From positions 186,001-250,000 of the forward strand of contig JADFIG010000002.1 in assembly GCA_022566735.1 (NCBI GenBank): a stretch of DNA of 64,000 nt, read 5' to 3'. This document shows, one piece after another, positions 30,628 to 37,722 of the stretch. Every line of letters starts with the position of its first letter. The stretch's first letter is position 1. The translations under genes and the position numbers were made by a program. Source of the DNA: Pseudomonadota bacterium (lineage in GTDB: Bacteria; Pseudomonadota; Gammaproteobacteria; Burkholderiales; Burkholderiaceae_C). The notes under the pieces are model-generated. The model did not search any database, had not been told where the DNA came from, and was given only the letters and a program-made list of their open reading frames with translations.

Positions 30628-33177
<2,550 letters not shown>

Positions 33178-33348: not shown

Positions 33349-34734
33349 ATGACTTGCTCACGCGCATGCCGCGTCGGGCTGGGTTGGGTGCTGGGCGCAC
33401 ACATGCTCCTGGCCACCGCAGCCGAGGCCTCGACCACCTTCTCCACCTACTTCAACCACCGGCCTGAAGCCAGCTTCGTCGAGCCCCATCGCGGCACGCA
33501 ACGCGAGGGCGACAACTTCGAGCAGGTGATCGTGCAGCGCATCACAGCGGCACGCACCCGCATCGACGTGGCCGTGATGGGCATCACCTTGCCCCACATC
33601 GCGCAGGCATTGGCCCAAGCCGCGCGCCGAGGGGTGCAGGTGCGCGTCGTGATCGACAACGGCTACAGCAGGAACTGGGCCGCCTTGACGCCCGACGAAG
33701 TCGCCAGCCTGAGCGATGCCGACAAGGAGGTGTGGGCCGAGGTGGACAGCCTGGTCGATGTCAATGGCGACGGCGAAGCATCCGATGCCGAACTGGCCGC
33801 CAACGATGTGGCCACCATCCTGGCGCGGGCAGGCATCCCGGTCATCGACGACACCGAAGATGGCAGCAAGGGCTCAGGCCTGATGCACCACAAGTTCGCC
33901 GTGTTCGACGGCGAGGTCGTGCTCACGGGCTCGGCCAACTGGACGCACAGCGGTTTCTTCGGCGACATCGGGCGGCCCGCCAGCCGAGGCAATGCCGAGA
34001 ACCTGGTGGAGGTGCGCCACGCCGAAGTGGCCCAAGCCTACGCGCAGGAGTTCGCCCTCATGTGGGGCGATGGGCCAGGGGACTCGCGCAACAGCCGCTT
34101 CGGCATCGCCAAAGGCGCACGTGCAGCCCTTGGCATCAGCACACCCGAAGGACTGGTTCAGCTTCAGTTCGGGCCCTTCTCCGCGAGCAAGCCCGTGGCC
34201 ACGACCACGGTCGGCTTGATCGACTCGGTGCTCCAAACGGCGGTGAGTCGCATCGACTTGGGCGCCTTCGTGCTGACCGATGCCACCTTGACCGACACCA
34301 TGGCACAGCGCGCCGCCAAGGGCGTGATGGTGCGTGGCCTGTTCGATCAGGGCTACGTTGACAACGACTTCAGCGCCACGCTGGACATGTGGGGCGTGCG
34401 CTTGCGGGATGCGGCCTGCGCGCTCAAGCCGCAGTTGCGCCCCTGGCCTGTCATGCCCATGGCCATTGGTTATCCGGTCTTGCCGGAGGGCGACAAGCTG
34501 CACCACAAGGTCGCGGTGGTGGACGACCGCGTTGTGATCGCGGGCTCGATGAACTGGTCGGCCGAAGCGCTCAGAAGCAACGATGAGAACGTGCTCATCG
34601 TTCATTCGCCCGCTGTGGCGACAGCGTTCCGCCAGGAGTTGGAGCGCCTGCATGCCGCGGCGGTGTATGGGCCTTCGCCGGCCTTGCGAGCCCGCGCCAT
34701 CCAGGACGCGCAGCGCTGCGCCAACACCCGATGA
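33349..34734 (+). CDS. secreted phospholipase D-like (dual HKD) protein with EF-hand-like insertion
   Basis: Signal peptide; HHKFAVFDGEVVLTGSANWT and HHKVAVVDDRVVIAGSMNWS HKD motifs; DVNGDGEASDAE at 33757-33792. Confidence 0.88.
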   Translation: MTCSRACRVGLGWVLGAHMLLATAAEASTTFSTYFNHRPEASFVEPHRGTQREGDNFEQVIVQRITAARTRIDVAVMGITLPHIAQALAQAARRGVQVRVVIDNGYSRNWAALTPDEVASLSDADKEVWAEVDSLVDVNGDGEASDAELAANDVATILARAGIPVIDDTEDGSKGSGLMHHKFAVFDGEVVLTGSANWTHSGFFGDIGRPASRGNAENLVEVRHAEVAQAYAQEFALMWGDGPGDSRNSRFGIAKGARAALGISTPEGLVQLQFGPFSASKPVATTTVGLIDSVLQTAVSRIDLGAFVLTDATLTDTMAQRAAKGVMVRGLFDQGYVDNDFSATLDMWGVRLRDAACALKPQLRPWPVMPMAIGYPVLPEGDKLHHKVAVVDDRVVIAGSMNWSAEALRSNDENVLIVHSPAVATAFRQELERLHAAAVYGPSPALRARAIQDAQRCANTR

Positions 34735-34751
34735 ACCCAAGGGAGGACGCC

Positions 34752-35312
34752 ATGAATCGCTTCATTTCGAACGCGCGCCGCTGCTTGGGCGCTTTGCTCT
34801 TGCCCATCGTGCTGGCCCTGCCAGCCTTTGCGGCCGACAAACCCCTGCCGGGTGAAGTCAAGGTCATCGATGTCAAAGAGGCCATGAGCCCAGCCAATGC
34901 GGCGTTCCAGGCCTGTGCCACGGGCATGCCACCGGGCAAGGCTGTGGCTGTGGGCGTGGACCCATCCATCAGCCGCACCGGCATGGTGAAGTTCGATGGC
35001 CTGGGGCCGGACGGCAGCCTGCTGATCGAGGCCAAAGGCTTTGGGTACAAGATCGATGAAAAGCTGGGGGTGTGGAAGGTGGGCTACGTCGCAGACAGAA
35101 TGCAGACGAAGTTGATCAAGCAGGCTGAACGACAACTGGACGCAGTTCGCTCGGTTGGACGGTCTGTGCAGTGGGTGGTGCCCAACGAGGGCATCCGCAA
35201 AGCATTTGCAGAACTTCTTGACGGGCGGATTCCTGTGAAAGTTGGACCTCCCAGGCCCGACTGTCCCAAATCAAGTGGTTCAGGCGGAGGGGACGCAGGT
35301 GGCTCCTTTTGA
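34752..35312 (+). CDS. Sec-signal-bearing protein with Tox-REase-5-like (PD-(D/E)xK) C-terminal domain, putative toxin
   Basis: MNRFISNARRCLGALLLPIVLALPAFAADK signal peptide; VKFDGLGPDGSLLIEAKGFGY...QAERQLDAVRSVGRSVQWVV matches the remembered D...ExK pattern of Tox-REase-5. Confidence 0.65.
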   Translation: MNRFISNARRCLGALLLPIVLALPAFAADKPLPGEVKVIDVKEAMSPANAAFQACATGMPPGKAVAVGVDPSISRTGMVKFDGLGPDGSLLIEAKGFGYKIDEKLGVWKVGYVADRMQTKLIKQAERQLDAVRSVGRSVQWVVPNEGIRKAFAELLDGRIPVKVGPPRPDCPKSSGSGGGDAGGSF

Positions 35313-35348
35313 CGTGTTGGCATGCCCTGAATGGAAGCACCTGAGAAC

Positions 35349-36086
35349 ATGACTTATCCCGACTACCGCTTGGTATGCACTTGGGGCGCCCGCAGCCAGA
35401 CAGCCCAGGAAATCGCGCACGATGTGATGCGGTTCTCGCAGCGGCTGCTGGATGCGTGCCCGCAGTTCGGGGCCTGGCATTACCTGGGCCCACGTGACAA
35501 GCTGATGCCCTTGCCGCTCGATGCGATTCAAGTGTGTCAACAGGCGATTGAGCCAGGCAACTGCGAGCGGCGTGGCGCTGCGCCCGATCTGGTTTTGCCC
35601 GTGGGGTTCAGTGTGTTGCTGTACACGTCCAAACGAGACGGTGTTGCCTGGATGGCCCATGTGGGCAAGGGCACGGCCTGGGCCCATAACCGCGTCGCCA
35701 TCAACTGCGCCCGCAGGGGCGATCTGGCCCAGGTCATGACCGAGCCCGACATGATGGAGCGGCTGTTTCGGGTCATGGTCGAGGTGTGGCAGCCGGACTG
35801 GGCGAGGGTCTCGCACACGGACATGAGCGACCCAGAGTACGCATTCCCCGTGCACTGGATGCTGTACGGCCGCGAGCCCTTGCCGCCGGGGCTGGTGCTG
35901 CCCGATGGCGTTCGGGCGCATGGCTTGACCGGCGCGTCTGGCGAGGTGCTGGCGCCGGGCCAGTACTTCGTCACCACGCCGGGCGAGCGCTTTGTGTACA
36001 GCCACCCCGAGCACCAGGCGCGCTGCGAGGCCTTGAAACGAGTCTTGCGCGAGGCGGGGTGGTTGCCGCCTCCGCCGCAGGCGTGA
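35349..36086 (+). CDS. Imm52-family-like immunity protein, copy A
   Basis: Directly downstream of the toxin-like gene; family called from gene order and remembered Tox-REase-5/Imm52 pairing. Confidence 0.65.
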   Translation: MTYPDYRLVCTWGARSQTAQEIAHDVMRFSQRLLDACPQFGAWHYLGPRDKLMPLPLDAIQVCQQAIEPGNCERRGAAPDLVLPVGFSVLLYTSKRDGVAWMAHVGKGTAWAHNRVAINCARRGDLAQVMTEPDMMERLFRVMVEVWQPDWARVSHTDMSDPEYAFPVHWMLYGREPLPPGLVLPDGVRAHGLTGASGEVLAPGQYFVTTPGERFVYSHPEHQARCEALKRVLREAGWLPPPPQA

Positions 36087-36112
36087 CGCTTGATCCTTGC
36101 TTGACAAAGAAC

Positions 36113-36856
36113 ATGACTTATCCCGACTACCGCTTGGTATGCACTTGGGGCGCCCGCAGCCAGACGGCCCAGGAGATCGCTCACGATGTGGTGCGTTTTT
36201 CATCGGCCTTGCTGGCGGTGTGCCCCGCGTTGCAGGCATGGCATTACCTGGCGCCCAAAGACAAGCTGATGCCCTTGCCGGATGACGTCGATGAAGTCAG
36301 GCTCAAGGTCCTGAGGCCAGGCAATGGTGCCAGGCGAGGTGTTGCGCCGGACTTGACCTTGCCGGTGGGCTTCAGTGCCTTGCTGCTGACATCCAAGAAG
36401 ATTGACGCAGCATGCTGGATGGCTCACACGGGCTCGGACGGTGGTGGCTTGGGCAGCCGCGTGGCCATCAACTGTCCTCGCAGGGGCGATCTGGCCCAGA
36501 GCATGACCGAGCCCGGCATGATGGAGCGGCTGTTTCGGGTCATGGTCGAGGTGTGGCAACCGGACTGGGCGAGGGTCTCGCACACCGACATGAGTGACCC
36601 AGAGTACGCATTCCCCGTGCATTGGATGCTGTACGGCCGTGAGCCCTTGCCGCCGGGGCTGGTGCTGCCCGATGGCGTTCAGGCGCATGGCTTGACCGGT
36701 GCTGCGGGCGAGGTGCTGGCGCCGGGCCAGTACTTCGTCACCACACCGGGCGAGCGCTTTGTGTACAGCCACCCCGAGCACCAGGCGCGTTGCGAAGCCT
36801 TGAAGCGGGTGTTGCGCGAGGCGGGGTGGTTGCCGCCGGTGCCCGTCTTCGCTTGA
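36113..36856 (+). CDS. Imm52-family-like immunity protein, copy B
   Basis: Tandem paralogue of copy A: identical first 26 residues, divergent centre, near-identical C-terminal half. Confidence 0.65.
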   Translation: MTYPDYRLVCTWGARSQTAQEIAHDVVRFSSALLAVCPALQAWHYLAPKDKLMPLPDDVDEVRLKVLRPGNGARRGVAPDLTLPVGFSALLLTSKKIDAACWMAHTGSDGGGLGSRVAINCPRRGDLAQSMTEPGMMERLFRVMVEVWQPDWARVSHTDMSDPEYAFPVHWMLYGREPLPPGLVLPDGVQAHGLTGAAGEVLAPGQYFVTTPGERFVYSHPEHQARCEALKRVLREAGWLPPVPVFA

Positions 36857-36873: not shown

Positions 36874-37722
36874 ATGATCTTCACCGAACAGCTGCTGCGT
36901 GCGCAGCACCAGCACCAGTCGCTGCTCTGCGTGGGCCTGGATCCCGAGCCCTCGAAGTTCCCAGGCGCCTGGCAGGGCAAGCCCGAGCGCATCTACGACT
37001 TCTGCGCGGCCATCGTGGACGCCACGAAGGACCTGGTCTGCGCCTTCAAGCCGCAGATCGCCTACTTCGCGGCCCACCGCGCCGAAGACCAGCTGGAGCG
37101 CCTGATGGCGCACATGCGCCGCGTGGCGCCCAGCGTGCCCGTCATCCTGGACGCCAAGCGCGGCGACATCGGCGCCACGGCCGAGCAGTACGCCCACGAG
37201 GCCTTCACGCGCTACCAGGCCGATGCCGTCACGCTGTCGCCCTTCATGGGCTTCGACACGATGGAGCCCTTCCTGCGCTTCCCGGGCAAGGGCGTGATCC
37301 TGCTGTGCCGCACCTCCAACCCGGGTGGCTCGGACCTGCAGAACCTGCGCCTGGCCGACATCGCAGGCCAGCCGCGCGTGTACGAGCACATTGCGGCCCA
37401 GGCGCAAGGCCCGTGGAACACCAATGGCCAGATGGGCCTGGTGGTGGGCGCGACCTTCCCCGAAGAGATCGCCCGGGTGCGTGAGCTCGCGCCAACGCTG
37501 CCCTTGCTGATCCCCGGTGTGGGCGCGCAAGGCGGTGACGCCGCGGCCACGGTGAAGGCCGGTTTGAAGACGGATGCGAGCGGCGCGGTCACGGGCACCA
37601 TCGTGGTCAACAGCTCGCGCGCGGTGCTGTATGCCCACAGCGCGAGCAGCGGCGAGGACTTCGCCAGCGCGGCCCGCCGCGTGGCCCTGCAGACGCGCGA
37701 CGCGCTGAACGCGGCACGCTGA
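36874..37722 (+). CDS. pyrF: orotidine-5'-phosphate decarboxylase
   Basis: [14 protein letters not shown]...[18 protein letters not shown]. Confidence 0.95.

What the first reader, a model, noticed from the sequence alone, without database searches (positions are those of the whole stretch)
33349..36856. Accessory cassette between purB and pyrF: PLD enzyme, Sec-exported nuclease-fold toxin, two tandem immunity genes
Four co-directional, closely spaced genes sit between two housekeeping genes: a secreted dual-HKD PLD, a 186-aa protein with a Tox-REase-5-like D...ExK core, and two Imm52-like proteins. Tox-REase-5 with Imm52 is a known polymorphic-toxin pairing, but such domains are usually C-terminal tips of large T6SS/Rhs/CDI carriers. 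Here the toxin is a stand-alone small protein with its own Sec signal peptide and no VgrG, PAAR or Rhs nearby, next to a secreted PLD 17 bp upstream. This may be a minimal periplasm-routed or two-enzyme effector module.
Basis: partly seen in the sequence, partly recalled or inferred. Interest (0 to 1): 0.8.

Follow-up and report, generated by a model that had tools for sequence, protein, structure and literature searches.

The report
Secreted nuclease toxin with immunity genes
An Aquabacterium genome carries a small mobile cassette that appears to export a DNA-cutting toxin and a phospholipase-like enzyme through the general secretion pathway while making two cytoplasmic antidotes; the toxin-antidote pair is a known type used against rival bacteria, but this stripped-down exported form bundled with a second enzyme was not found described in what I searched.

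Summary
Between purB and pyrF lie a secreted dual-HKD PLD, a 186-aa Sec-signal protein and two Imm52 genes. Pfam recognises Tox-REase-5 and Imm52 above their cut-offs. Low-confidence AlphaFold models of toxin and immunity protein independently find the two partners of one crystal complex, Pseudomonas TseT-TsiT. PLD, toxin and Imm occur in 5 of 42 congeneric genomes, PLD and toxin never apart, at two chromosomal sites. Other congeners show the empty purB-pyrF site, or an unrelated PEP-CTERM-like gene there. The genes are under purifying selection; toxin 3' parts and immunity 5' parts are mosaics, as in polymorphic toxins. The toxin groups with CdiA-CT and HINT-type toxins, not with T6SS TseT-like proteins. 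Best reading: a CDI-type toxin tip detached and fused to a signal peptide, exported by Sec and probably T2SS, with cytoplasmic immunity. Not shown: toxicity, export, target entry, the PLD's role. Correction: stand-alone ~195-aa Tox-REase-5 proteins recur in Burkholderiales; what is unusual is the signal peptide plus the dedicated PLD. Signal-peptide polymorphic toxins, Tox-REase-5 included, were catalogued in 2012, so this is a new variant of a known kind.

The parts
33349..34734 (+). Secreted dual-HKD phospholipase D-like protein (461 aa); signal peptide about 33349-33429; HKD motifs near residues 177-199 and 383-410
   Evidence: translation; PLDc_2 1.6e-47 with two stretches; nearest solved relatives mitochondrial cardiolipin hydrolase, NucT and Nuc endonuclease
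33757..33792 (+). EF-hand-like loop DVNGDGEASDAE inserted in the first PLD domain
   Evidence: read directly from the translation; acidic loop kept in all five congeners; calcium binding is inference
34752..35312 (+). Tox-REase-5 nuclease-fold toxin, 186 aa; FDG at 34992-35000, EAK at 35028-35036
   Evidence: Pfam 29.8 bits over cut-off 25; top two Foldseek PDB hits of its low-confidence model are TseT (9oz0_B prob 0.97, 7dym_A prob 0.87)
34752..34832 (+). Predicted type I Sec signal peptide of the toxin (MNRFISNARRCLGALLLPIVLALPAFA|AD)
   Evidence: positively charged n-region, 12-aa hydropathy maximum 2.76, AxA site; pattern conserved across congeners; no SignalP available
35062..35312 (+). 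Variable part of the toxin (from about codon 105): DNA identity between alleles falls from ~95% to 50-60%
   Evidence: sliding identity
35349..36086 (+). Imm52 immunity protein A (an in-frame upstream ATG at 35331 exists; 35349 matches the paralogue's start)
   Evidence: Pfam Imm52 32.2 bits over cut-off 25; no N-terminal hydrophobic segment
35409..35723 (+). Variable segment of ImmA (about codons 20-125), between ends that are near-identical in ImmA and ImmB
   Evidence: amino-acid identity 35-85% in the segment against 90-100% in most windows outside it
36113..36856 (+). Imm52 immunity protein B
   Evidence: Pfam Imm52 35.4 bits; AlphaFold model matches TsiT 7dym_B and 9oz0_A (E 5.6e-6, prob 1.0) and the Imm52 crystal 9owg
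31810..33177 (+). purB, left flank
36874..37722 (+). pyrF, right flank; about 15-56 bp after purB in congeners with the near-bare site

Best explanation
This is a horizontally exchanged, minimal polymorphic toxin cassette. The toxin is a TseT-type PD-(D/E)xK nuclease domain of the CdiA-CT branch that has no large carrier and is instead exported by its own Sec signal peptide, together with a dedicated secreted PLD; a T2SS is the most likely outer-membrane exit. In a competitor it would cut nucleic acid. The PLD most likely helps the nuclease past the target envelope, or attacks that envelope. The Imm52 proteins stay in the cytoplasm, where they neutralise unexported precursor and incoming toxin from kin; extra copies cover variant toxin alleles. 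Shown here: families, fold-level match to TseT/TsiT, gene linkage, mobility, selection, mosaicism. Inferred: export, T2SS exit, antibacterial use, the PLD's role, the target.
For: Pfam hits over cut-off for toxin and both Imm. Toxin model's best PDB hits are TseT and the immunity model's hits include TsiT from the same complex. Closest sequence relative outside the genus is the C-terminal tip of a filamentous-haemagglutinin (CdiA-like) protein on a Rhizobium plasmid, followed by an Imm52 gene; the tree splits it, the HINT toxin and ours from ten T6SS-type sequences with 98/97 support. The same family of bacteria contains a signal-peptide HINT Tox-REase-5 protein. PLD and toxin co-occur in exactly 5 of 42 congeners. 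Empty and alternative sites, second site in G019, lower GC3. dN/dS about 0.15-0.3. Mosaic alleles in toxin 3' and Imm 5' parts. Nonsense codon in the A. commune toxin while its Imm stays open. GspG-family (T2SS pseudopilin) genes present in the genome. Two mature-toxin cysteines (C55, C171) are conserved in the genus; the CdiA-CT and HINT domains have no cysteine at those sites, as might be expected for an oxidising route.
Against: No toxicity or secretion data. No receptor-binding or translocation domain, so how a free ~17-kDa nuclease enters a target is unexplained. Toxin alleles and immunity alleles do not clearly co-segregate across the four related loci. The GspG-family hits do not prove a working T2SS that takes these proteins.
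Confidence: 0.55

Rival explanations
1. A barnase-barstar-like arrangement: two secreted hydrolases (nuclease and PLD/Nuc-type enzyme) that degrade extracellular nucleic acid or lipid for nutrition, with Imm52 acting only as a cytoplasmic inhibitor protecting the producer.
For: Both enzymes carry Sec-like signals, the inhibitors do not; the PLD resembles Nuc/NucT nucleases; no delivery domain. The barnase-barstar comparison is from general knowledge.
Against: Patchy presence, 1-3 tandem immunity copies and mosaic toxin/immunity alleles fit antagonistic diversification better than nutrient scavenging.
Confidence: 0.22
2. An orphan T6SS cargo effector whose N-terminal hydrophobic stretch is not a signal peptide but a chaperone- or PAAR-dependent loading segment.
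For: The genome has TssC and two PAAR proteins; most stand-alone Tox-REase-5 proteins in the order look like TseT with hydrophobic N-termini.
Against: No T6SS gene beside the module; the toxin lacks the CxxCPP-type pre-toxin region and falls outside the T6SS-type group; its N-terminus has a charged n-region, short hydrophobic core and AxA site; the partner PLD also has a signal-like N-terminus.
Confidence: 0.08
3. A decaying remnant: a captured toxin tip kept mainly for its immunity genes.
For: Nonsense codon in the G011 toxin and a broken PLD frame in G019.
Against: Toxin and PLD are intact in the window and under purifying selection across the genus (dN/dS about 0.2); signal peptide and catalytic motif conserved.
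Confidence: 0.1

Closest known systems
TseT-TsiT (P. aeruginosa PA3907-PA3908, T6SS)
   Same: Tox-REase-5 nuclease domain and Imm52-fold immunity protein; both our models hit this complex
   Different: TseT is T6SS-delivered; ours has a Sec signal peptide, no T6SS genes beside it and falls in another branch than T6SS-type relatives
CdiA-like filamentous-haemagglutinin protein with Tox-REase-5 tip and Imm52 (e.g. Rhizobium sp. CB3090 plasmid)
   Same: Closest toxin domain by sequence outside the genus (37% over 134 columns) and Imm52 downstream
   Different: There the toxin is the last ~120 aa of a 1768-aa carrier; here there is no carrier and a C-terminal Cys- and Gly-containing tail is added
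Sec/T2SS polymorphic toxins of Zhang et al. 2012 (PMC3482391)
   Same: Signal-peptide export; Tox-REase-5 listed with T2SS, T5SS, T6SS and PrsW routes and Imm52 as partner
   Different: Typical members have repeats or releasing peptidases (HINT in G055); ours is signal peptide plus toxin only, with a PLD partner
SitBAI of Myxococcus (PMC5562445)
   Same: Operon of type I signal-peptide accessory protein, Sec-exported polymorphic nuclease toxin and immunity gene
   Different: SitA is an outer-membrane lipoprotein moved by outer membrane exchange; SitB is a predicted beta-barrel, not a PLD; our toxin has no lipobox
Nuc/NucT and mitochondrial cardiolipin hydrolase (PLD superfamily)
   Same: HKD domains
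   Different: Ours is a two-domain secreted protein with an EF-hand-like insertion; substrate unknown

Membership tests
Tox-REase-5 (PF15648) | Profile score above the curated cut-off | tested here: met
   29.8 bits against 25
Tox-REase-5 (PF15648) | Conserved motif FDG, EAK, Y, Q, W (PMC3482391) | tested here: met
   FDG 81-83, EAK 93-95, Y99, Q128, W141, invariant in congeners
Tox-REase-5 (PF15648) | Restriction-endonuclease fold as in TseT | tested here: inconclusive
   low-confidence model (pLDDT 54.5), but the top two PDB hits are TseT structures, E 0.026 and 0.047
Tox-REase-5 (PF15648) | Nuclease activity and toxicity | not testable with these tools
   bench assay needed
Imm52 (PF15579) | Profile score above the curated cut-off | tested here: met
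   32.2 and 35.4 bits against 25
Imm52 (PF15579) | Fold of TsiT/Imm52 crystals | tested here: met
   7dym_B, 9oz0_A, 9owg with prob 1.0, E 5.6e-6 to 9.2e-5, from a model of modest confidence
T6SS effector | Adjacent T6SS genes or a T6SS loading domain | tested here: not met
   none among neighbouring ORFs; T6SS genes lie on other contigs; outside the T6SS-type branch
CdiA / two-partner CDI toxin | Large carrier with haemagglutinin repeats and a CdiB partner | tested here: not met
   toxin is 186 aa; no CdiB-like gene among the neighbouring ORFs
Sec/T2SS polymorphic toxin | N-terminal signal peptide on the toxin protein | tested here: met
   n/h/c regions and AxA site, conserved in the genus; judged from sequence features, no SignalP run
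Sec/T2SS polymorphic toxin | Actual secretion by T2SS | not testable with these tools
   only presence of GspG-family genes was shown
SitA lipoprotein toxin | Lipobox cysteine after the signal peptide | tested here: not met
   ALPAFA|ADK has no cysteine at the site

The most novel reading that the evidence does not exclude
A self-contained two-enzyme, carrier-free weapon: a secreted PLD opens or modifies the target envelope and a free Sec/T2SS-secreted nuclease of CDI origin then enters and cuts nucleic acid, with activity gated by a disulfide formed outside the cytoplasm; no contact-dependent apparatus is needed.
Probability: 0.2. Interest if true: 0.75.

Novelty: new variant of a known kind. 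Interest (0 to 1): 0.45.

Why it matters
Nuclease toxins of this family are generally thought to need an injection machine or large filament carrier to reach the target cytoplasm. A short operon that exports the bare nuclease with a dedicated lipase/nuclease-like partner would make that delivery problem directly testable in a few kilobases, and shows how toxin tips can be detached from CDI-type carriers and re-routed.

Tried and rejected
Viral contigs and phage records gave no relative, so no phage link was found. A class-wide scan of 369 genomes found no Tox-REase-5 other than the window's own, and the Burkholderiales scan found only canonical stand-alone TseT-like proteins. Sequence search of the PDB with our toxin, one immunity protein or the immunity alignment found nothing meaningful; only fold comparison did. 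A promoter scan found no site. I tested whether toxin alleles and first-immunity alleles co-segregate: they do not cleanly (the window and G011 share a toxin tail; the window, G026 and G009 share the ImmA type). An orphan T6SS effector was considered and rated unlikely. Weak Imm52 hits in four other genomes of the family were looked at only as ORF maps. The genome-contig scan was run with a close-only alignment, so distant signal-peptide relatives may have been missed.

Full report
What is there. The window lies in an Aquabacterium-group genome (its relatives are titled Aquabacterium commune DSM 11901, Aquabacterium sp. and Burkholderiales MAGs). Between purB (31810-33177) and pyrF (36874-37722) are four genes on the + strand: PLD 33349-34734, toxin 34752-35312, ImmA 35349-36086 and ImmB 36113-36856. 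Pfam assigns PLDc_2 (two stretches), Tox-REase-5, and Imm52 twice, all above curated cut-offs. NCBIfam has no match for the toxin or immunity proteins.

Structure-level check. [quoted passage not shown] The immunity model (pLDDT 59, pTM 0.62) matches TsiT in the same complexes with E 5.6e-6 and prob 1.0, and the Imm52 crystal 9owg; the very best hit is an uncharacterised Burkholderia protein, 4rho. Two separate models pointing to the two halves of one complex is good evidence that this is a TseT/TsiT-type pair.

Which branch. Sequence comparison places the toxin with the C-terminal tip of a 1768-aa filamentous-haemagglutinin protein on a Rhizobium plasmid (37% over 134 columns), which is itself followed by an Imm52 gene. 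A tree of 14 domains separates our toxin, its G019 homologue, that CdiA-like tip and a HINT-type tip from ten stand-alone T6SS-type proteins, support 98/97; the HINT branch is long and its exact place unsure. The ten T6SS-type proteins are about 190-210 aa with mostly hydrophobic N-termini and a CxxCPP-like motif; one was shown to sit by PAAR and Imm52. So stand-alone Tox-REase-5 is not unusual; the signal peptide and the branch are.

Export. The toxin starts MNRFISNARRCLGALLLPIVLALPAFA|AD: charged n-region, hydrophobic core (12-aa maximum 2.76), AxA site; the 68%-identical homologue in G019 keeps the same pattern with changed letters. The PLD has a weaker signal-like N-terminus (maximum 1.70). 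Neither immunity protein has one at its N-terminus. Two cysteines of the mature toxin, C55 and C171, are invariant in the genus; the CdiA-CT and HINT domains have no cysteine at those sites. A disulfide is inference. The genome has GspG-family genes, so a T2SS exit is possible but unproven.

Linkage and mobility. Among 42 congeners, PLD and toxin are each found in the same five genomes and never alone (if independent, about one chance in 850,000, though relatedness makes that an overstatement). Three loci are read complete between purB and pyrF (G000, G026, G011); the fourth (G009) follows purB and its contig ends inside the second Imm; the fifth (G019) lies at another place, between a copper-chaperone-like gene and a TPR/LapB-like gene. 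Close PLD relatives were absent from 299 other genomes of the order at E 1e-30; 32%-identical ones on Vibrio plasmids are not beside toxins in the one record viewed. In twelve congeners purB and pyrF are about 15-56 bp apart, and in thirteen the gap holds a single exported protein of about 225-270 aa ending in a PEP-CTERM-like tail. The junction is therefore a variable site. Third-position GC is 0.70 (toxin), 0.80-0.83 (Imm) and 0.85 (PLD) against 0.92-0.945 in purB, pyrF and the next gene, as expected for acquired DNA.

Selection and mosaicism. dN/dS is 0.17-0.27 for the toxin, 0.15-0.25 for the PLD and 0.07-0.32 for Imm. The PLD and the first ~100 codons of the toxin are mostly 85-100% identical in DNA between the four related loci, then identity falls sharply to 50-60% in parts of the rest of the toxin, with different break points in different pairs. 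ImmA and ImmB are 90-100% identical at both ends but 35-85% in codons 20-125. This pattern, with one to three Imm copies per locus, is what recombining polymorphic toxin-immunity loci look like. The alleles do not co-segregate simply, so which Imm is cognate is unknown. In A. commune (G011) the toxin has a nonsense codon at position 137 while its single Imm is open; in G019 the PLD reading frame is broken. These are single genomes and could include sequencing error.

Mechanism. Most likely the cassette exports two enzymes, the nuclease being of a type shown elsewhere to be an interbacterial DNase/RNase (PMC9990079), and protects the producer's cytoplasm with Imm52. How a free nuclease crosses a target envelope is the open step; the invariable PLD partner is the obvious candidate but nothing here shows it. 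The chief rival is a barnase-barstar-like secreted nuclease with cytoplasmic inhibitor, used for scavenging.

Novelty. Zhang et al. 2012 already list Tox-REase-5 with the T2SS/Sec route and Imm52 (PMC3482391), paired immunity genes are known for TseTBg (PMC9990079), and SitBAI is an operon of exported accessory protein, exported toxin and immunity (PMC5562445). The carrier-free Sec form with a dedicated PLD did not appear in the paper searches made (titles, abstracts and selected passages only). I rate it a new variant of a known kind.

Noticed in passing
L051-L078, region between purB and pyrF: The purB-pyrF junction is a variable site across the genus: nearly bare in twelve genomes, and in thirteen occupied by one exported PEP-CTERM-like protein of ~225-270 aa, mostly of one family.
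   Followed up: partly
L038 5314-7376 (G055): A signal-peptide protein with a HINT pretoxin domain and a C-terminal Tox-REase-5, followed by a 183-aa protein that matches no Pfam family: a candidate unrecognised immunity family.
   Followed up: partly
L016 7588-8145 (G011, A. commune DSM 11901): In-frame TGA at toxin codon 137, after the catalytic motif; the PLD (up to near its end) and the single Imm52 remain open.
   Followed up: partly
L018 7862-9231 (G019): PLD reading frame is broken into two pieces while toxin and Imm52 are intact; the module sits at a different chromosomal site.
   Followed up: partly
window 33757-33792: EF-hand-like acidic loop inserted in the first PLD domain, kept in all five loci; suggests calcium dependence.
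   Followed up: no
L079 51-6024 (Rhizobium sp. CB3090 plasmid): CdiA-like 1768-aa protein with Tox-REase-5 tip and downstream Imm52 on an unannotated plasmid record.
   Followed up: partly
PDB 4rho (Burkholderia BPSL2088), best fold match of the model of window 36113-36856: A hypothetical protein crystal structure is the best fold match of the Imm52 model, suggesting it may be an unrecognised immunity protein of this fold.
   Followed up: no
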